NCBI RefSeq assembly: GCF_014647475.1
Contig: NZ_BMPG01000004.1
Coordinates: 62,001-126,000, forward strand
Source: Halocalculus aciditolerans
GTDB lineage: Archaea; Halobacteriota; Halobacteria; Halobacteriales; Halobacteriaceae
Length of the DNA stretch: 64,000 nucleotides
Reading direction: 5' to 3'
The translations under genes were made by a program, and so were the position numbers. Under the pieces are notes generated by a model, which was not told where the DNA came from, did no database searches, and saw only the letters and a list, made by a program, of their open reading frames with translations. This document shows, piece by piece, positions 2,900 to 44,219 of the stretch; position 1 is the stretch's first letter; every line of letters begins with the position of its first letter.

Positions 2900-3343
2900 A
2901 TGGTCGCGTTCGACGGCGGTTACGACCCCGGTGAAGCCTCACACACGGTCCTGCTCGAACTCCGTCGCACAGTTACACGCCATCCTGTCGTCCAGCATGC
3001 CAGCGGCGAGCCGCCCGGCCAGTTCAGCCGCGTTGTCGCGACACTCGACCCGGTTGTTCTCGGGAGCAGCGCGGACGAGGGAACGCTCACGATTCGGTGG
3101 TACGCGGGTGAAACCGCTGCTTCTGAGCCGGAGTTTGCCTTCCACTACAGCGACTCCTCGGGATTCGACTGCGGCTGGCACTACGAACCCAACCCGCACG
3201 TCGAAGGGCGGGCGCACTATCAGGAACGCTCGACACCCGATGACGACTACGTCTATGAGGAGATAGCGTTCAGCAGCCTACAGCCGATCCGTCTCCTCTG
3301 GGAAATCCTCGAGCGGCTCGAAGACCGACAGAGAGACCACTGA
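2900..3343 (+). CDS. TumE-like small beta-rich protein, cassette 1 (putative toxin)
   Basis: 147 residues, starting 4 nt after the HTH gene stop. The ATG at 2900 is chosen because the longer frame overlaps the HTH gene. The core has a strand with IRWY, then FAFHYSDSSGFDCGWHYEP and a later AHYQE, ending in a helix LLWEILERLEDR. The pattern W...HY.D...GF.CGWH...H[FY] is shared with the proteins at 36098 and 46750 and resembles the TumE (DUF6516) layout of a beta sheet with paired aromatic/His positions. A toxin role is inferred. Confidence 0.65.
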   Translation: MVAFDGGYDPGEASHTVLLELRRTVTRHPVVQHASGEPPGQFSRVVATLDPVVLGSSADEGTLTIRWYAGETAASEPEFAFHYSDSSGFDCGWHYEPNPHVEGRAHYQERSTPDDDYVYEEIAFSSLQPIRLLWEILERLEDRQRDH

Positions 3344-4670: not shown

Positions 4671-4782
4671 CCAGCGCTGTCGAGGCTGCGCGTCTCAGTC
4701 GCTCTCAGTGATCGCCTGCTGGGTCTCGTCGAGGAGGGTGCGAACGCGTTCGGCGAGGTCGCCACGACGGGGGACGCCTCTT

Positions 4783-5211
4783 CTACGCCTCTGTCGTGGC
4801 TTCGAGTTCGTCGAAGAGCTCGCGGACGAGCGCTTCGACCTCGTCTCGAATCCGTGCGGCCTCTTCGACTGATCGGCCGTCGGGGTCGTCGAGGTCCCAG
4901 TCGCGGTTCTCGCCCGCCCAGCCCGCGGGGCAGACGTCGTCGGCCGAGCAGCCCATCGTGATGACGATGTCGCTGCGCTGAATCTCCTCGAACGTCACTT
5001 CGCGGGGCGTTCGGTTCGCGATGTCGATGCCGACGGCGGCCATGGCGTCGACGACCTCCGGGTGGACGTGATCCGCCGGGTCGGTCCCTCCAGTGACGAG
5101 TTCGACCTCGTCTCCGAGGTGTCGCTCGGTGCGTTCGCGTTCGGCGAAGGCGGAGGCCATCTGAGAGCGGCCAGCGTTCTGCACGCAGACGAGAGCGACG
5201 GTGGTCGTCAT
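4783..5211 (-). CDS. arsC: arsenate reductase, low-molecular-weight phosphatase type
   Basis: 142 residues; reduces arsenate to arsenite in the cytoplasm for export by the neighbouring ACR3. The P-loop CVQNAGRSQ (C at about residue 9) gives the C-x5-R motif of the LMW-PTP fold. The resolving cysteines are in GCSADDVCPAG (about 89-99), as in the thioredoxin-coupled Staphylococcus-type enzyme. The ATG at 5209-5211 is the only start that stays in frame, because an 86-bp tandem repeat covers the 5' end. The ancestral start was probably at 5389 (MPEKTTVAL...). Third gene of the arsR-acr3-arsC operon. Confidence 0.9.
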   Translation of the reverse strand: MTTTVALVCVQNAGRSQMASAFAERERTERHLGDEVELVTGGTDPADHVHPEVVDAMAAVGIDIANRTPREVTFEEIQRSDIVITMGCSADDVCPAGWAGENRDWDLDDPDGRSVEEAARIRDEVEALVRELFDELEATTEA

Positions 5212-5377
5212 CGGGCGACCTCCGAGCGAGCGTGCAGAGCAAGCGAGACTCGTCTCGCCCAGTTCTGCACGCAGACGAGAGCGACGGTGGTCGTCATCGG
5301 GCGACCTCCGAGCGAGCGTGCAGAGCAAGCGAGACTCGTCTCGCCCAGTTCTGCACGCAGACGAGAGCGACGGTGGT
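5177..5377. repeat. 86-bp perfect tandem repeat at the arsC start (2 full copies plus 29 nt)
   Basis: Units start at 5177, 5263 and 5349, with the third copy only 29 nt long (5349-5377). The two full copies are identical by eye, suggesting a recent duplication. Each unit carries the first codons of arsC, its ATG and a small palindrome gcgagac-tc-gtctcgc (5243-5258 and 5329-5344). Since 86 is not a multiple of 3, the copies shift frame. Confidence 0.92.
5208..5297 (-). CDS. mini-ORF 2 upstream of arsC (29 codons, repeat-derived)
   Basis: Encodes the arsC N-terminus MTTTVALVCVQN followed by frameshifted repeat sequence. Its TGA overlaps the arsC ATG (ATGA), so ribosomes ending here could restart on arsC. 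It exists only because the 86-bp unit is duplicated. Confidence 0.35.
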   Translation of the reverse strand: MTTTVALVCVQNWARRVSLALHARSEVAR

Positions 5378-5389
5378 TTTCTCGGGCAT
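5294..5389 (-). CDS. mini-ORF 1 upstream of arsC (31 codons, repeat-derived)
   Basis: Starts with the probable ancestral arsC start (MPEKTTVALVCVQN), then runs into repeat sequence and ends at a TGA overlapping the ATG of mini-ORF 2 (ATGA). It begins 3 nt after the acr3 stop. Translation is plausible, but it may be only a remnant or a coupling device; no function as a peptide is claimed. Confidence 0.4.
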   Translation of the reverse strand: MPEKTTVALVCVQNWARRVSLALHARSEVAR

Positions 5390-5391
5390 GG

Positions 5392-6453
5392 TTAGTCGGT
5401 GGTGGTGTAGGTGGGGGTGGTCGTTTCGGCGTCGAAGAGCCGGGTCTTGGTCGCGAGGGCGACGCGGACGAGCGCGAGCATGACGGGGACTTCGATGAGG
5501 GGGCCGACGACGGTGGCGAGGGCGACGTTGCTGCCGATGCCGAAGACGGCGACGGCGACGGCGATGGCGAGCTCGAAGTTGTTCGAGGAGGCGGTGAAGG
5601 CGAGGCTCACGCTCTCGGTGTAGTCGAAGCCGAGGAGCGCGCTGACGCCGTAGGCGGCGGCCCAGAGGACGACGAAGAAGACGAGGAGGGGGATGGCGAT
5701 GAGGACGATCTGGCCGGGGTTAGAGATGATGTAGTCGCCTTTGAGCGCGAACATCACGACGACCGTGAAGAGGAGGCCGAGGAGGCCGAGCGGGCCGATG
5801 CGGGGGATGAACCGCTCGTAGTAGGTGTCGCGGCCGACGGTGCGGAACGCGACTTGTTGGGTGAGGTAGCCGAGGAGGAGCGGCAGGCCGAGGAAGACGA
5901 AGACCATCTGGGCGATCAACACCGTCGAGACGTCGATGCCGCCGCCGCGGAGGACGGTGAGGAAGAAGAACGCGTAGGGGACGAAGAGCGCGATCTGGAG
6001 GAGGCTGTTGACGCCGACGCAGACCGCACACATCTCCTGGTTGCCGGCGGCGAGCTCGTTCCAGACGAGTACCATCGCGATGCAGGGCGCGATGCCGACG
6101 ATGACGAGGCCGGTGACGAACTCGGGGTGGCCGCCGAGGAAGAAGACGGCGAGCCCGTACATGAGGAACGGGGCGATGAGCCAGTTGAAGACGAGGGTCA
6201 GCCCGATTTCCTTTCGGGCCGTGCGGGTGACGCGCGGGATGCGCTCGTAGTCGATCTCCGCCATGATCGGGAAGATCATCACGAAGAGGCCGAGGGCGAT
6301 GGGGAGACTCGTCCCGTGGAACGTGATCGCGTTCAGCGCGTCGGCGACGCCCGGGACGAATCGACCGAGCGCGACGCCGACCACCATCGCGAGACCGATC
6401 CAGAGCGTCAGATACCGGTCGAGCACGCCGAGGTCGTCGCTCACGCGAGCCAC
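5392..6453 (-). CDS. arsB: ACR3-family arsenite efflux transporter
   Basis: 353 residues, about ten transmembrane helices. The helix-4 motif GIAPCIAMVLVWNELA holds the conserved Cys that ACR3 proteins need for arsenite binding. A second family element, SNNFELAIAVAVAVFGIGS, lies near residue 290. It exports arsenite from the cytoplasm. It follows arsR by 46 nt and precedes the arsC region by a few nt, so the three form one operon. Length is normal for ACR3. Confidence 0.94.
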   Translation of the reverse strand: MARVSDDLGVLDRYLTLWIGLAMVVGVALGRFVPGVADALNAITFHGTSLPIALGLFVMIFPIMAEIDYERIPRVTRTARKEIGLTLVFNWLIAPFLMYGLAVFFLGGHPEFVTGLVIVGIAPCIAMVLVWNELAAGNQEMCAVCVGVNSLLQIALFVPYAFFFLTVLRGGGIDVSTVLIAQMVFVFLGLPLLLGYLTQQVAFRTVGRDTYYERFIPRIGPLGLLGLLFTVVVMFALKGDYIISNPGQIVLIAIPLLVFFVVLWAAAYGVSALLGFDYTESVSLAFTASSNNFELAIAVAVAVFGIGSNVALATVVGPLIEVPVMLALVRVALATKTRLFDAETTTPTYTTTD

Positions 6454-6499
6454 CTCCCGTCGTGGGCGTGAGTGAGTCGGGCCGACGGTTCGACGCGAA

Positions 6500-6892
6500 T
6501 CACGCGTCCGCCCTCCGGTCGTCGGCGGTCGCGAGGAGGTCGTCGGTCAGCGGGGTCGTCGAGTAGTACCGCCAGTTGCCGTCCTTGCGGCGGGTGACGA
6601 GACCCGCCTCGACGAGGTCGGCGAGGGCGTGACTGACGGCGCTCTCGCTGACGTCGACGAGGGGTTCGAGCTCGCAGACGCAGAGCTCGTTACCGGCGAC
6701 TGAGAGGGCGCGGGCGAGGCGGTAGCGCGTCTCGTTCCCGAGAACAGCGAAGACGGGACGGGCACCGTCGTCGGCGAACGCTGTGTCGGCGAGGTCGTTC
6801 AGTTCGTCGAGGCGCTGCTCGACGTCGGAGTCACAGCAGTCCCCTAGTTGGTCCGCGAGGAGACGGCGAATGCGGTCAGGAGTCGTCGCCAT
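6500..6892 (-). CDS. arsR: ArsR-family metalloid-responsive repressor
   Basis: 130 residues, winged helix. The metal-sensing helix has ELCVCELEPLVDV with the two Cys of the classical arsenite site, followed by the recognition helix SESAVSHALADLVEAGLV and a wing with RRKDGNWRYYS. An additional CC pair stands near residue 20. The ATG at 6890-6892 is chosen over an upstream one because it starts the conserved part. First gene of the ars operon; it presumably represses its own promoter in the 125-bp gap upstream. Confidence 0.9.
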   Translation of the reverse strand: MATTPDRIRRLLADQLGDCCDSDVEQRLDELNDLADTAFADDGARPVFAVLGNETRYRLARALSVAGNELCVCELEPLVDVSESAVSHALADLVEAGLVTRRKDGNWRYYSTTPLTDDLLATADDRRADA

Positions 6893-7018
6893 TACCTGCA
6901 GTTGAATCCTCATTCACATAGCTTCTGCGAATTGAATGCGAGTTCAGATACGGTGCTGGCAACGGATCGCACCGCGCAAAAAGCGAGAGAGACGTGATTC
7001 GACGGCGTCGACAGGGGC

Positions 7019-7618
7019 TCAAAAGCCCCAGCGGAGGCCGGACATCGTGCCGAGGACGGCGATCATGAGGACGAGTTCGACCAGGCTCAGCATCCCGTAC
7101 TTCTTGTTGAGGGAGGCGAGTCGCTCGTGGTCGGTGTCGTCGGCGGCGATTTCGTCGAACATCCCGGCGGTGAAGGTGTGGAGCGGGCCGAATCCGAGGA
7201 CGAGCAGCGCGATTGCGAGGACGAGCGCGGCCCACAGTGAGAGCGACGGGGCCGCCCAGAGCCCCATCATGCTCGCGAGGCCGATACCGGAGGCGATGAC
7301 GCCGACCGAGACTGGTTCCATGAGGAGGTTCATCTTCGGGACGAAGCCCCCGGCGAACTCGGCGTTCGCCTCCTCGGAGAGACCCCCCATCACGGGGCCG
7401 AGGACGGCCGCGCCGAGCACGGCGGTCCCGAACCAGAACGCCCCGAGGAACAGATGGACCGTGAACAGCACCCGAGAGTCCCCGGAGAGATACCCGAGAA
7501 CCGGGAGTAGGAGTGGGACGGCGATTGCGCCGACGGCGAACGGCCGAGAGGCCGCGTCCACCATCAGCCGGTAGCGTTCGCGACGGTTCGACGGGCGTCG
7601 TGCATCAGCTAACGCCAT
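7019..7618 (-). CDS. CopD-like / DUF2269-like membrane protein
   Basis: 199 residues with about five hydrophobic segments; VHLFLGAFWFGTAVLG and MLSLVELVLMIAVLG are typical of small CopD-like membrane proteins. A His in the first of these (VHLFLG) and HTFTAGMF are candidate haem or copper positions. It stands between the ars operon and a small histone-fold gene on the same strand, with no clear operon link. Substrate unknown. Confidence 0.65.
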   Translation of the reverse strand: MALADARRPSNRRERYRLMVDAASRPFAVGAIAVPLLLPVLGYLSGDSRVLFTVHLFLGAFWFGTAVLGAAVLGPVMGGLSEEANAEFAGGFVPKMNLLMEPVSVGVIASGIGLASMMGLWAAPSLSLWAALVLAIALLVLGFGPLHTFTAGMFDEIAADDTDHERLASLNKKYGMLSLVELVLMIAVLGTMSGLRWGF

Positions 7619-38640: not shown

Positions 38641-39528
38641 CTACTCCGTCTGCGTCTCGGTGAGACCTTGGAGGTCGTACTCGTTCCCGGTGGCGACTTC
38701 GAGGAGGTCTTCGAGGAAGCCCGCGAGCTCGGGGAGAACGCGGACGAGGCCGAGCGTGATGGCGACGAGAACGACGAGTGAGAGCGACTGGGCGATGATG
38801 CGGTCGGCGACGATGTAGGAGACCATGTACTGGTCGACGCCGAAGACCGGGCGGATGAGAGCCTGGAAGAACGGCCCGGCGAACCACTGCTCGCCGTTCG
38901 AGAGCGCGATGAACGCGACGCGGAGGACGTTCAGCGCGTAGATGATGGGGATGGCGACGCCGAACGCGATGGCGCGGCGGCGGAGCGGCGCGTCGACGGC
39001 CGCGATGAGCCCCGTCACCACCGCCATACTCCCGACGCCCGTGCACGCGAGGAGCACCGTCGTCACGTAGCGCTGCTCGGGCGTCACCATCAGGAAGCTA
39101 TCGTTCGGGATGTTGTACGTGATGATCTCGGGGTCGTAGCCGAGCGTGTGCAGGATCCAGTCGACGTGCGCGACGATGGCGTGCACGCCGACGACGTGCA
39201 GGTAGCGTACCGTCAGGAAGGGCAGGTAGACGATACCCATGACCGCGATCGCCTTCTGCAGCGTCGCCATCCCGTTCCGGCCGTTGTACGCGAGGTACGC
39301 CGCGTAGAGACAGCCCGGAACGGCGAGCGCGCTCAACACGCCCTCGATGGGCGACGCCTGCACGAACGCGAAATGGTCGATCAGCAGGCCCCAGAACACC
39401 GCGAAGGACGCCCAGGCCGCAACCGACACGTAGCGAGCGACCGCCTCACGTCGACCCGCGAGCACCACCGAACCCACGAACAACGCGATGACGACCCACG
39501 CGAGCCGGTCAGTCAACGCGAGAGACAT
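38641..39528 (-). CDS. artA: archaeosortase A
   Basis: 295 residues, about eight helices. The exosortase/archaeosortase signature is complete: active-site Cys in LLACTGVGSMAVV (near 161), Arg in NVLRVAFIALS (near 201) and a final His/Asp-type position further on. ArtA cleaves the PGF-CTERM tail and joins the protein to a lipid. Two PGF-CTERM proteins lie directly after it (39822 and 41583), including the S-layer protein. An acidic tail ends the protein. Confidence 0.95.
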   Translation of the reverse strand: MSLALTDRLAWVVIALFVGSVVLAGRREAVARYVSVAAWASFAVFWGLLIDHFAFVQASPIEGVLSALAVPGCLYAAYLAYNGRNGMATLQKAIAVMGIVYLPFLTVRYLHVVGVHAIVAHVDWILHTLGYDPEIITYNIPNDSFLMVTPEQRYVTTVLLACTGVGSMAVVTGLIAAVDAPLRRRAIAFGVAIPIIYALNVLRVAFIALSNGEQWFAGPFFQALIRPVFGVDQYMVSYIVADRIIAQSLSLVVLVAITLGLVRVLPELAGFLEDLLEVATGNEYDLQGLTETQTE

Positions 39529-39821: not shown

Positions 39822-41342
39822 CTACTGCCGCCGTCCGATAAGCATGACGAGTACGAGTGCCATTAGGCCTGCTGTAACCTCGAAACCGGGTGTCGTCGTG
39901 CTCGTGGTCGTATCACTCGTGGTTGTATCCCTCGTGGTCTCGGTCGACGTCGACGTTGTCTCCGCTTCCTCCGTGGTGCTCTCGTTCGCCAGACTCACAG
40001 CCGTCTCATTGGGCGTCTGTTTCGTTCCGTTCGCAGTGAAGTTTACCGTTCCCACGCTCTGATTCGTCACGTTCACCGTCTGATTCGTCGCATTCACCGT
40101 CTGATTCGTCGCGTTCACCGTCAGATTGGTGGTCGTCGTTTGATCGCTATGATGGCTGGAGCTGCCGCTATTTCCGTTACCGTGGTCGTCTTCCTCGTTT
40201 CCGTCCGTCGAATCGGTCTCGGTTCCATCACCCCACGACTCAGGATGGAGAGCCTTCGCGAGGGTCGTAATCGGCTGAACGACGCGGGGTGCAGGCTGGT
40301 TCAAATAGTTGTTATCGAGAACCACAACGTTCCCGTTCTTCACCGCGTCAGTGCTGTTGTACGCCGAAGTTTTCGGAACAGACGGATTCTGACTATTCCG
40401 TACGATCCACTCGGGGTTCTGCTGAACAATGACCTCACTACTAATCTCCTTGTATCCAGTGATTCCTGCCTCAGCGGCGACGTTCGTCCCGCCAGCGAGC
40501 GTGATGATGTTATCGATGAACGTCTCGCTCCCGGCAGTGTACCCGTAGAAGGTGTAGAGGACGCCTGGCCGGTCAGTTCCGGAGGTCGCTTCATCGACGG
40601 TGGCGAGCCGAGATTCCATCGTGGAAACGGTCTCACTCGCTCCGTCGCAGTTCCCGGTGAGGCGGCCCGTCGCGTGAGTTTGCTCCTTGATATCCGCGAT
40701 ACTCTCCGCGGCCTCATAGTGGTAAACGGTAAGTCCGGAGTCACGGAGCGTACCCACGGTCTCGTCTGAAATCGTATCAGGGGCGAGGACCAAGTCTGGT
40801 TCGAGGGAGACGACCTTCTCTTGGTCGACATAGCTCATCCCGGATCCGGACACGTCTGCTTTCTCGCTCGCGCCGTCAAGATAACTCGCAGATCCCGTCA
40901 CCCCCACAACGCGGTCCGCAGCACCAATCTCCCAGACAATCTGCGCCGCACTCGGACTAAGCGTCACAATACGTTCCGGGGGCGTATCCATCGTGACGAC
41001 CGTTCCTGTCGCATCGGTCTCCGAGACCGGATACTCACAGGTCGTCTCAATCGGGCTTGCCCCGCTAGATGTCGTCGTCGACGTCGTTGTCGTCGATGAC
41101 GTACTGGTCGTCGTCGTTGACGTCGATGTCGTCGTTGACGTCGTTGTCGATGACGTGCTGGTCGTCGTCGTCGATGTCGTCGTCGTGGTCGTTGTCGTTG
41201 CAGTGTTCCCCGCCGCGGCAACGGGCCCAGCGGTAACCGCTTCCGGTCCACTTGCGCCTGTCGCTCCGACCGAACCAGTGATTCCCCCACTGAACACTGA
41301 GCCAATGACCACGAAGGCGAGAAGAAGGGCTCTAAGTCTCAC
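39822..41342 (-). CDS. BtuF/FecB-type substrate-binding protein anchored by PGF-CTERM
   Basis: 506 residues, GTG start. Signal peptide (1-26), Thr/Ser-rich link (about 48-92), then the class III binding domain with TPPERIVTLSPSAAQIVWEI and DRPGVLYTFYGYTAGSETF, ending about 365. After this come a His/Asp-rich stretch, a run of N-glycosylation sites (NLTVNATNQT, NATNQTVNVT), another Thr link and TTTPGFEVTAGL then a helix and RRQ, the ArtA signal. Such proteins are normally lipoproteins; ligand likely cobalamin or ferric siderophore. No permease is adjacent. Confidence 0.85.
   Translation of the reverse strand: MRLRALLLAFVVIGSVFSGGITGSVGATGASGPEAVTAGPVAAAGNTATTTTTTTTSTTTTSTSSTTTSTTTSTSTTTTSTSSTTTTSTTTSSGASPIETTCEYPVSETDATGTVVTMDTPPERIVTLSPSAAQIVWEIGAADRVVGVTGSASYLDGASEKADVSGSGMSYVDQEKVVSLEPDLVLAPDTISDETVGTLRDSGLTVYHYEAAESIADIKEQTHATGRLTGNCDGASETVSTMESRLATVDEATSGTDRPGVLYTFYGYTAGSETFIDNIITLAGGTNVAAEAGITGYKEISSEVIVQQNPEWIVRNSQNPSVPKTSAYNSTDAVKNGNVVVLDNNYLNQPAPRVVQPITTLAKALHPESWGDGTETDSTDGNEEDDHGNGNSGSSSHHSDQTTTTNLTVNATNQTVNATNQTVNVTNQSVGTVNFTANGTKQTPNETAVSLANESTTEEAETTSTSTETTRDTTTSDTTTSTTTPGFEVTAGLMALVLVMLIGRRQ
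41079..41202. repeat. (GTC)-rich trinucleotide stretch coding for the Thr/Ser link
   Basis: Runs of gtcgtc with interspersed gac and gat; on the coding strand Thr and Ser codons. Such runs can change length by slippage, altering the link between the signal and the binding domain. Confidence 0.6.
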
Positions 41343-41582: not shown

Positions 41583-44219
41583 TTAGTTGTCGCGGCGGAG
41601 CGCGATGAGCGCAGCGCCGAGGAGCGCGATGAGACCAACAGCAACGCCGAAGCCGGGCGTGCTGGTAGACGTCGTCGTGGACGTCGACGTCGTGCCGCTG
41701 GACGTCGTCGTCGTGGACGTCGTCGTGGACGTCGTCGTGGACGTCGTCGTGGACGTCGTCGTGGACGTCGTGGTCGTGCTCGTGCTCGTGCCAGCGTCTT
41801 CAACTACCATACCGTCAACGTCGTCAACGTCCTCGGAGAGGGCGTTGATGGAGACGGTGAAGTTGGTGCCGACCTGCGTGTCGCTGAAGTCGAAGTCGCC
41901 GGCGAAGGTGCCGTCAGCGGTCGCGTTGACGGAGGAGTCCGTCTTGATGAACGGGTTCTGGTCAGAGTCCGACTGCGCGCGGATCGTGAACTCGTTGCCA
42001 GGCGCCCAGTTCGTCGTACCGCTGATGGTCTGGTTCGCTGCGGGCTCGACAACGATCGTGTCGTTGTCGTTCGTGTCGAAGGACGTGTCAGCGTCTTCGA
42101 CGCTGAAGTCCGTGTTAACGTGCTTGAGCTTCTTGGAGATCTTGCTCTCCTTCGGGATCGTGACGTTAACTTCGTACTCGTCTTCAACTTCGACGTCGTT
42201 GCCACCGTCGAACGTCTCAGCGGTGGACGGTTTGAACGCGACGAAGAGCGAGTTGTTCTTCTGGTCAACGACGGTGTTCGCAGTAGCCGTGACGTTGATG
42301 ACCTTGTTAGGCGCGTTCGGAGCGGGGTTCGTCTGCGTGACGTTGATGACGAACTCGCTGTTCGTCACGTCAAGCTCGCTGCCACCGTTGGAAGTTGCCT
42401 GAAGGTCCTGAAGGTCCTTGCTTTCGAGCGCGCCGAAGAAGCCGCTACCTTCGATCTGAAGGACGACGAGGTCGCTCGTGGATTCGTCCTCAACCTTCGT
42501 GATGGAGGAGTCCTCGACGAGCGTCTCGTTGTCGATCGCCGAGTAGACGTCGGCCTTCTCGTCGAGCGTGGTGTCGCTCGCAGTCGTCCACGTCGTGACA
42601 CCCGTCAGGGAGCTGGACTGGACGAACAGGGAGCCGAGTGCGTCGGGCGAGTCGAACGTGTTGTTGTAGTCGTCGATGTCGTTAGCGTCGGTGCTCGTGT
42701 TGGTAGTGACGCCAATGTCGTAGCCGTCACTGCTGGTCGCGAGGAGACCATCGAGGTCGCCCTCCTCGTAGACGTTCGAGAGCTTGTCGTCGCTCGTGAC
42801 GGAAAGGACGTCGCCACCGCTGGTGGACAGGTTCTGCGGGTCGTCACCAGCGTTGTAGGTGTTGAACTGGACGTACACCTTGCCGTCATCGTTGTCGTCG
42901 ACGATCGTACCGGCGATCTTGTAGTTCGCGTCATCGGAACCGACCGAGACGTGAGCGGTGTCCGTATTCTGCAGGTTGACCGTGATGTTCGCGACGTCAC
43001 CCTGACCGACCGTGTAGGTGCTCGGGCTGAGGCTGACCTTCTCGTCGCCAGCTTTCTTCACGTTGAGCGTGTCCATGTCCTCAGCGGACGTGTCGGTCAC
43101 GTCGAACGTGAAGTTGTGTTCGCCCGTCGGCGTCTTCGGGCTGGAGTCCTGCGCGTTCAGCGTGTAGGAGACGTCGTTGCTACCGGAGATGACGAGGATG
43201 TCATCGCTGGAGTACTGGTCCTCGGTGACGTCCGAGTACGCGCTGCTCGGGAAGAGGTTTTCGAGGTCAGTGTAGTCCATTCCGCTCGCGGAGACGTTAA
43301 CCGCGTAGTCACCGCGGTTGGAGTCGAGATCGAGGTCGACCGTCTCTCCACGCGTGACGTTGTCGCTGTCGAAGGACGCGGAGAAGGACTGGGTTGCGAC
43401 CTCCCAGGTCGTGGCACCAGCGTTACTGAAGGTGGAGCCAGCGCTCCCGCCCGAGATCTGGACGTATTCGCCGTTAGGAGCTTCGATGACGTAGTCACCG
43501 TCGAGTTCGGACGTGCCAAGGACGTAGACACCGTCGTCACCCGTGGTGAACTGGGTCGCCAGGCCGCCGACGACCTCGTCGCCAGCGTCGTAGCTACGAA
43601 CCTCGTAGGTGGCGTCAGCCTGACCGCTGAAGTAGAGGTCCTGGCCCTGCCAGAACGTCGTGTTCGTGTCGAGCTTGTCGTCGAACTCGTAGTCGCCCTG
43701 GTTCGGCGCGTTGACCGAGATGGAGCCGAGCTGAGCGTTGTTCACGTCGTCACCGTTCTGGTCGGTGATGTCAGCCGTGATAGCAACGTTCGTGTCAGTG
43801 TTCACGTTGGGGTACTGAATCGTGGCACCCTCAACGGTGATGTCGGCGTCGACGTTGGAGCTAGAAGGCTGAACCTCGAAAGCGATGTCGCCATTGTTGG
43901 TGACGAAGCCGCTCTTGGAGGTGCCAATGCTGGAGGCGATGTTATTCACGCTCGTGAACTCAGCACCGTTGCTGAGCGAAAGCGTGACGTTAACCGTGCC
44001 ACCGCTATTGGCGCTGTTCAGATTCGGTGCTGTGAATGCGATATCGTGCGTCACCGACGCTCCAGAGTTAACGGGAGCAGACGGGCTGATGTTGACATCC
44101 GTCGGAGAGTTCGCAGCAGCGGCGCCACCGGAGAAGGCGACGACGCCCGCGAAGACGGACACAACCATCAGCGCGGTGAGGAACACCGCACGCGTTTTGG
44201 TATTAGTGTCGTTTGTCAT
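41583..44219 (-). CDS. csg: S-layer (cell surface) glycoprotein with PGF-CTERM tail
   Basis: 878 residues. N-terminal signal MTNDTNTKTRAVFLTALMVV type ending AAAAN (about 36). Large, acidic, beta-rich extracellular region with many NxS/T sites. A Thr/Ser-rich stretch (about 817-848), STPGFGVAVG and a final helix then RRDN form the archaeosortase signal. This is the main cell wall protein. Base use is less GC-rich than its neighbours and Lys/Asn/Thr rich, a normal S-layer feature. Promoter with long leader and a clear terminator present. Confidence 0.95.
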   Translation of the reverse strand: MTNDTNTKTRAVFLTALMVVSVFAGVVAFSGGAAAANSPTDVNISPSAPVNSGASVTHDIAFTAPNLNSANSGGTVNVTLSLSNGAEFTSVNNIASSIGTSKSGFVTNNGDIAFEVQPSSSNVDADITVEGATIQYPNVNTDTNVAITADITDQNGDDVNNAQLGSISVNAPNQGDYEFDDKLDTNTTFWQGQDLYFSGQADATYEVRSYDAGDEVVGGLATQFTTGDDGVYVLGTSELDGDYVIEAPNGEYVQISGGSAGSTFSNAGATTWEVATQSFSASFDSDNVTRGETVDLDLDSNRGDYAVNVSASGMDYTDLENLFPSSAYSDVTEDQYSSDDILVISGSNDVSYTLNAQDSSPKTPTGEHNFTFDVTDTSAEDMDTLNVKKAGDEKVSLSPSTYTVGQGDVANITVNLQNTDTAHVSVGSDDANYKIAGTIVDDNDDGKVYVQFNTYNAGDDPQNLSTSGGDVLSVTSDDKLSNVYEEGDLDGLLATSSDGYDIGVTTNTSTDANDIDDYNNTFDSPDALGSLFVQSSSLTGVTTWTTASDTTLDEKADVYSAIDNETLVEDSSITKVEDESTSDLVVLQIEGSGFFGALESKDLQDLQATSNGGSELDVTNSEFVINVTQTNPAPNAPNKVINVTATANTVVDQKNNSLFVAFKPSTAETFDGGNDVEVEDEYEVNVTIPKESKISKKLKHVNTDFSVEDADTSFDTNDNDTIVVEPAANQTISGTTNWAPGNEFTIRAQSDSDQNPFIKTDSSVNATADGTFAGDFDFSDTQVGTNFTVSINALSEDVDDVDGMVVEDAGTSTSTTTTSTTTSTTTSTTTSTTTSTTTTSSGTTSTSTTTSTSTPGFGVAVGLIALLGAALIALRRDN
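41660..41790. repeat. (GTC)-rich trinucleotide stretch in the S-layer gene
   Basis: Consists of gtcgtcgtggac-type units (gtcgtggacgtc repeated), coding for Thr/Ser runs before the PGF motif. Several 12-bp units are identical, so the length may vary between strains. Confidence 0.65.

What the first reader, a model, noticed from the sequence alone, without database searches (positions are those of the whole stretch)
5177..5389. 86-bp tandem repeat creates two coupled mini-ORFs in front of arsC
Two identical 86-bp units and a 29-nt third piece cover the arsC start. Each repeat ends one mini-ORF in a TGA overlapping the next ATG (ATGA), so 31- and 29-codon ORFs lead stepwise into arsC. The ancestral start at 5389 is now disconnected from arsC. 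Copy number changes would alter translation of arsC, an easy route to heritable tuning of arsenate reduction. The repeat and frames are seen directly; the tuning idea is inferred.
Basis: partly seen in the sequence, partly recalled or inferred. Interest (0 to 1): 0.65.

Follow-up and report, generated by a model that had tools for sequence, protein, structure and literature searches.

The report
Structured mini-ORF leader of archaeal arsC
The repeat in front of this salt-loving archaeon's arsenate-reductase gene is a doubled copy of a conserved RNA-folding leader, found with zero, one or two units across related species, that most likely lets ribosomes reach arsC only after they have read the gene upstream and a short decoy open reading frame.

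Summary
The repeat is real: two identical 86-nt units (5176-5261, 5262-5347) plus a 30-nt third piece (5348-5377). It makes 31- and 29-codon ORFs that end in ATGA overlaps leading into arsC. It is not just a fresh duplication. The same unit (a mini-ORF that copies the ArsC N-terminus up to CVQN, a spacer, then a stop/start overlap) precedes arsC in 16 of 26 Halobacteriaceae genomes and in two Haloarcula-group genomes, with 0, 1 or 2 units. The distance between copies (86, 89, 110, 113, 131 nt) is always 2 mod 3. The spacer folds as RNA: an inner hairpin, an outer stem using the mini-ORF's own CVQN codons, and a hairpin closing the Shine-Dalgarno site and start codon. Nine of 24 base pairs show changes on both sides (0 of 500 shuffles), while the peptide is not conserved as protein. 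Close relatives with zero units have an intact ArsC beginning at the window's first mini-ORF start. Best reading: a cis-acting leader that makes arsC translation depend on ribosomes coming from acr3 through the mini-ORF; the window carries two such steps. Copy-number tuning is plausible between species but untested within one. I found no published description. Nothing was measured.

The parts
6500..6913 (-). arsR (ArsR/SmtB-family regulator), first gene of the operon
   Evidence: Pfam HTH_5, NCBIfam HTH_metalloreg
5392..6453 (-). acr3 arsenite efflux gene; its stop TAA (5394-5392) lies 2 nt before the first mini-ORF start
   Evidence: TIGR00832 E=9e-117; gap of 2 nt
5294..5389 (-). mini-ORF 1 (31 codons); its start is the ancestral ArsC start
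   Evidence: intact ArsC with the same N-terminus in Halarchaeum sp. CBA1220
5208..5297 (-). mini-ORF 2 (29 codons), start overlaps the stop of mini-ORF 1 (ATGA)
4783..5211 (-). arsC (142 aa, LMW-phosphatase type), start overlaps the stop of mini-ORF 2 (ATGA)
5262..5347 (-). 86-nt unit, first in reading direction
   Evidence: covariance-model hit G000:C4:67262-67371, E=2.4e-27
5176..5261 (-). 86-nt unit, second in reading direction
   Evidence: covariance-model hit G000:C4:67176-67285, E=2.4e-27
5348..5377 (-). 30-nt partial copy of the repeat in the first mini-ORF
5350..5358 (-). X1 (GCGUGCAGA, codons of CVQ in mini-ORF 1), 5' strand of stem P1
   Evidence: covariation of P1
5316..5324 (-). 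X' of unit 1 (UCUGCACGC), can pair with the X before it or the X after it
5329..5344 (-). P2 inner hairpin of unit 1 (GCGAGAC-GA-GUCUCGC)
   Evidence: I12; covariation
5289..5309 (-). P3: hairpin closing the Shine-Dalgarno-like GGAGG and the start codon of mini-ORF 2
5264..5272 (-). X2 (same 9 nt, in mini-ORF 2)
5230..5238 (-). X' of unit 2
5243..5258 (-). P2 inner hairpin of unit 2
   Evidence: I11
5203..5223 (-). P3: hairpin closing the Shine-Dalgarno-like GGAGG and the arsC start codon
5178..5186 (-). X3 (same 9 nt, in arsC; codons of the P-loop CVQ)

Best explanation
The repeat unit is a cis-acting translational leader of arsC that acts as RNA plus a translated mini-ORF. The arsC Shine-Dalgarno site and start codon are closed in a hairpin (P3), so ribosomes rarely start there on their own. 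Ribosomes that finish acr3 restart on the mini-ORF, whose start lies at or near the acr3 stop. They run through the structured spacer, terminate on a TGA that overlaps the arsC start, open P3 and restart on arsC. ArsC is then made in proportion to, and below, Acr3, which suits an enzyme whose product (arsenite) is harmful without efflux. The window carries two units, hence one extra termination-reinitiation step, predicted to lower ArsC further. Shown by sequence: the architecture, its conservation, the RNA covariation, the phase rule and the empty sites. Inferred: the coupling itself, its direction and the effect of copy number.
For: Architecture in 18 loci with ATGA, GTGA or TGATG overlap and spacing always 2 mod 3 at five different lengths. 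RNA covariation: 9 pairs changed on both sides, 30 cells, covariation score 0.219 against 0.080 shuffled (0/500) and at most 0.067 for slid partners (RNAalifold agrees). The start-codon window folds at -17.8 kcal/mol on average in element loci, against -7.1 for the most structured candidate start of 87 arsC loci without it. The spacer's pN/pS is 0.94, against 0.57 for the following arsC codons, so the peptide is not what is kept. In most loci the mini-ORF start lies close to the upstream stop, acr3 or, in G339, arsR (gaps -23 to +20). Literature: 13 of 14 overlapping gene pairs tested in Haloferax volcanii (9) and E. coli (5) were strictly coupled (PMC6728339), and about 20 nt between stop and start nearly abolishes coupling (PMC10666635), so without the mini-ORF the displaced arsC start would be uncoupled from acr3.
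Against: No expression, ribosome-profiling or reporter data. Related sequences are not independent, so the shuffle counts overstate significance. P1 is weak or lost in Haloarcula pellucida and G339, so only P2, P3 and the overlap are general. The element is absent in several close relatives (CBA1220, KA-4, G010), so it is not essential. In the Haloarcula pellucida locus no coupled upstream gene is seen, and in G247 the acr3 stop lies 42 nt before the mini-ORF start. GC-rich haloarchaeal DNA forms hairpins easily: z-scores of single sequences are often modest, about -1 for the window's P3.
Confidence: 0.6

Rival explanations
1. Leader-peptide attenuation switch. The segment X' pairs either with X1 (mini-ORF) or with X2 (arsC). 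A ribosome that slows or stalls on the CVQN codons of the mini-ORF frees X' to pair with X2, which adds a second lock on the arsC start. ArsC would respond to translation speed, for example to cysteine or thiol status under arsenic.
For: Two mutually exclusive 9-bp helices exist in nearly all units and are near iso-energetic (window -47.0 against -46.6 kcal/mol; spread about -6 to +8). X1, X' and X2 changed together in G247 and G379. X1 is identical or nearly identical to X2 within each genome.
Against: X1 and X2 are the same sequence by descent, so alternative pairing follows automatically and cannot be separated from P1 by covariation. P3 closes the start in both states. Nothing points to a stall signal or ligand. 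P1 is degraded in two loci.
Confidence: 0.17
2. A neutral relic: repeated tandem duplication of the arsC start, homogenised by recombination, tolerated because ATGA overlaps keep arsC translated.
For: Presence and absence is patchy (8 label changes on the ArsC tree). Three close pairs have clean empty sites (window/CBA1220, G066/KA-4, G222/G010). The window's two units are identical.
Against: Covarying hairpins with indels in multiples of three. Direct repeats of about 30 nt that can excise precisely would be expected to vanish quickly without selection, yet they are kept in 11 of 13 Halobacterium genomes.
Confidence: 0.15
3. Recombination-driven phase or dose variation: X-X recombination changes unit number within populations, tuning ArsC heritably.
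For: 0, 1 and 2 units among relatives; every recombinant keeps an intact ArsC.
Against: No within-species variation could be examined. It is an evolutionary consequence rather than an alternative to the coupling mechanism, and no effect of copy number is known.
Confidence: 0.05
4. The unit is skipped at RNA or ribosome level (splicing or translational bypassing from X1 to X2), giving the long ArsC.
For: Matched X1 and X2 sequences flank a structured gap, and a Shine-Dalgarno-like site precedes the landing copy, as in phage T4 gene 60 bypassing (PMC5009743). Joining X1 to X2 is in frame and gives the N-terminus seen in zero-unit relatives.
Against: A start codon with a coupled stop is kept in every unit, which bypassing or splicing would not need. 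The spacer frame is open. By eye no bulge-helix-bulge motif was seen at the X boundaries.
Confidence: 0.03

Closest known systems
Translational coupling by termination-reinitiation at ATGA/GTGA overlaps (Haloferax volcanii, E. coli; PMC6728339, PMC10666635)
   Same: Same 4-nt stop/start overlaps, in haloarchaea, with a Shine-Dalgarno-like motif before the downstream start
   Different: The upstream partner is not a normal gene but a short ORF that copies the start of the downstream gene and carries conserved RNA hairpins; the unit can be present 0, 1 or 2 times
RNA-unfolding type of translational coupling (start site closed by structure until the upstream ORF is read; reviewed in PMC12548453)
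   Same: Start codon and Shine-Dalgarno site closed in a hairpin next to the upstream stop
   Different: Structure conserved by covariation over a family and combined with a duplicated segment that offers two alternative pairings
Translational attenuators with leader peptides (erm, cat type; from general knowledge)
   Same: Short leader ORF, mutually exclusive 1:2 and 2:3 helices, start site in a hairpin
   Different: No known inducer or stall sequence; here a stall on segment 1 would close the start, not open it; the leader sequence is a copy of the regulated gene's start
Phage T4 gene 60 and mitochondrial bypassing elements (PMC5009743)
   Same: Matched sequences flank a structured gap inside a gene
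   Different: Here the downstream copy has its own start codon coupled to a stop

Membership tests
Coupled gene pair by termination-reinitiation | Stop of upstream ORF overlaps or lies within a few nt of the downstream start | tested here: met
   ATGA, GTGA or TGATG in all 19 units, and GTGA in G339
Coupled gene pair by termination-reinitiation | Downstream translation depends on translation of the upstream ORF | not testable with these tools
   needs a reporter assay
Coupled gene pair by termination-reinitiation | Upstream ORF is translated | tested here: inconclusive
   Frame open in all units, spacing always 2 mod 3, spacer indels in multiples of 3; pN/pS 0.94 shows no peptide constraint
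Structured cis-regulatory RNA | Conserved secondary structure with compensatory changes | tested here: met
Structured cis-regulatory RNA | Member of a described Rfam family | tested here: not met
   No match near a gathering score in 4700-7100; the only overlapping one is a chance-level lncRNA hit
Leader-peptide attenuator | Two mutually exclusive helices of similar stability | tested here: met
   but it follows from X1 = X2
Leader-peptide attenuator | Specific stall codons or conserved stall peptide | tested here: not met
   Spacer peptide not conserved as protein; CVQN is kept but is the copied P-loop start
Mobile element | Multiple copies in a genome or at unrelated sites | tested here: not met
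   Strong model hits lie only at arsC; the one extra hit in an element genome is weak (29.9 bits, partial); none in viral contigs

The most novel reading that the evidence does not exclude
An archaeal leader-peptide attenuator made from a copy of the regulated gene's own start: ribosome progress on the mini-ORF's P-loop codons decides whether X' pairs with X1 or X2 and so sets ArsC output, with unit number (0, 1, 2) as a built-in dial.
Probability: 0.15. Interest if true: 0.78.

Novelty: new variant of a known kind. Interest (0 to 1): 0.57.

Why it matters
If right, it is a conserved, structured upstream ORF in archaea, where few such leaders are described. It ties a detoxifying enzyme to its efflux pump by translation rather than by a protein regulator. 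The unit is built from a duplicate of the gene it controls, so copy-number change costs nothing to the protein. The natural 0/1/2-unit series in close relatives makes the effect of repeated reinitiation steps directly measurable in Haloferax reporters.

Tried and rejected
Mobile element: only one site per genome at high score, none in viral contigs. Known RNA family: none. Conserved small protein: the C-terminal ALHAREVVA-like pattern is explained by the X' pairing, the Shine-Dalgarno site and P3; pN/pS 0.94, and G247 (ALDTR) and G379 (VLAAR) change the peptide while keeping most of the pairs. Bulge-helix-bulge intron: by eye no matching motif; not tested with a model. Binding site for an ArsR dimer: not tested; the arms covary instead of keeping one sequence. 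Decayed second arsC gene: only the first 12-20 codons are copied and the spacer is not arsC-like. Strain-level copy number: not possible, one genome held for the genus. Weak covariance hits (E 1e-7 to 1e-3): of those I read, most are arsC loci matching by the X2 sequence alone or chance; G223 has a mini-ORF with an ATGA overlap but without the CVQN copy.

Full report
OBSERVATION. The array is exact: two 86-nt units at 5176-5261 and 5262-5347 and a 30-nt partial copy at 5348-5377. All features read on the - strand. The operon is arsR (6913-6500), acr3 (6453-5392), mini-ORF 1 (5389-5294), mini-ORF 2 (5297-5208), arsC (5211-4783). Each mini-ORF ends in a TGA that overlaps the next ATG. The genome is a 27-contig haloarchaeal draft with a single arsC and a single copy of this region.

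RELATIVES. Searching for ArsC relatives and for pairs of the TGCGTnCAGAAC motif showed that the mini-ORF is not special to this genome. Within the family, 16 of 26 genomes have at least one unit: 11 of 13 Halobacterium, the window, Halarchaeum acidiphilum (two units), another Halarchaeum (G238), G222 and G396. Outside it, Haloarcula pellucida and G339 (same genus) have one each. The distance between successive motif copies is 86, 89, 110, 113 or 131 nt, always 2 mod 3, which is what keeps the mini-ORF stop overlapping the next start. At least four different indels in the spacer are multiples of three (read).

EMPTY SITES. Halarchaeum sp. CBA1220 carries the orthologous operon (acr3 about 89% identical over the aligned stretch) without any unit: its ArsC reads MPEKTTVALVCVQNAGRSQMAYAF from the start that in the window begins mini-ORF 1. 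Halobacterium sp. KA-4 against G066 and G010 against G222 are two more such pairs. Recombination between the repeated X segments always gives an in-frame ArsC, so units can be lost or gained without harming the enzyme. On an ArsC tree of 106 rows the unit count needs 8 changes, and it occurs on two well separated ArsC lineages, so gain, loss or transfer of the leader has happened repeatedly. The tree rests on few columns and many forks are weak.

RNA STRUCTURE. In an alignment of 17 units (A1, MAFFT, not fitted to structure) three helices stand out: P1 (X1 with X'), P2 (inner hairpin) and P3 (Shine-Dalgarno-like site and start codon with codons 2-4 of arsC). Nine of 24 pairs have changes on both sides, 30 cells; none of 500 shuffles reaches this, and slid partners give at most 3 pairs and 8 cells (RNAalifold). 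Clear cases are G247, where GUGUCCAGA pairs with UCUGGACAC in place of GCGUGCAGA with UCUGCACGC, and P2, which has CG, UA and GC at the same pair. P3 is a 7-8 bp stem around the start codon in most units, with GGUCGUC/GACGACC, GGUGGUC/GACCACC or GUGACGG/CCGUCAC. Start windows average -17.8 kcal/mol, against -7.1 for the most structured candidate start in 87 arsC loci without the unit. P2 and P3 are also seen in Haloarcula pellucida and G339, where P1 is weak (read from the sequences). Related rows inflate such counts, and single-sequence z-scores are modest for some units.

WHAT IS KEPT. Spacer codons in Halobacterium show pN/pS 0.94, against 0.57 for the next 30 arsC codons, so selection appears to act on the RNA and the frame rather than on the peptide. 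The apparently conserved peptide end is accounted for by X', the Shine-Dalgarno-like site and P3.

MECHANISM. Overlapping pairs tested in Haloferax and E. coli were strictly coupled in 13 of 14 cases (PMC6728339), and about 20 nt between stop and start nearly abolishes reinitiation (PMC10666635). In most element loci the mini-ORF starts close to the upstream stop. A closed arsC start, an overlapping stop and a short ORF bridging from acr3 fit a device that makes arsC translation depend on ribosomes from acr3 (or arsR in G339). This is inference; no expression data exist. In the window's two-unit leader the predicted equilibrium fold pairs X1 with X' of unit 2 and X2 with X' of unit 1, leaving arsC's X3 free of X'. 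The extra unit might therefore alter the switch as well as add a reinitiation step; I would not lean on a thermodynamic fold of a translated RNA.

ALTERNATIVES. Because X1 equals X2, X' can pair with either at similar energy, which is the layout of a leader-peptide attenuator; covariation cannot tell the two pairings apart. A neutral relic is possible but fits the covariation and the persistence of excisable repeats poorly. Bypassing or splicing is not excluded but is not needed.

NOVELTY. Literature searches found no paper joining arsC with translational coupling and no description of such a leader in haloarchaea, in a library limited to open-licence papers. I file it as a new variant of translational coupling leaders.

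Noticed in passing
L121 3069-3452 (Halarchaeum sp. CBA1220 plasmid NZ_CP054710.1, WP_255494165.1): The public annotation starts this ArsC downstream of the P-loop, at ATGGCGTACGCC, so the annotated protein lacks the catalytic CVQNAGR motif; the frame from the MPEKTT start at locus position 3013 includes it.
   Followed up: partly
L095 / L139 (Halarchaeum rubridurum): A mini-ORF (MPHTATTETTGTTAPHATATTTADTVNGMMVR) ends in ATGA at arsC but lacks the CVQN copy and the P1/P2 hairpins; only a short start hairpin remains. It may be a degenerate or separate version of the leader.
   Followed up: partly
window 38641-39528 (-), 39822-41342 (-), 41583-44219 (-): Archaeosortase A (TIGR04125) next to a PGF-CTERM-anchored substrate-binding protein and an S-layer-type glycoprotein with PGF-CTERM; the Thr/Ser-rich linkers explain the low-complexity tandem repeats at 41068-41200 and 41668-41771.
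   Followed up: partly
ArsC tree: The leader occurs on two well separated ArsC lineages, within Halobacterium too, which suggests that ArsC bodies were exchanged downstream of a kept leader, perhaps at the conserved P-loop codons.
   Followed up: no
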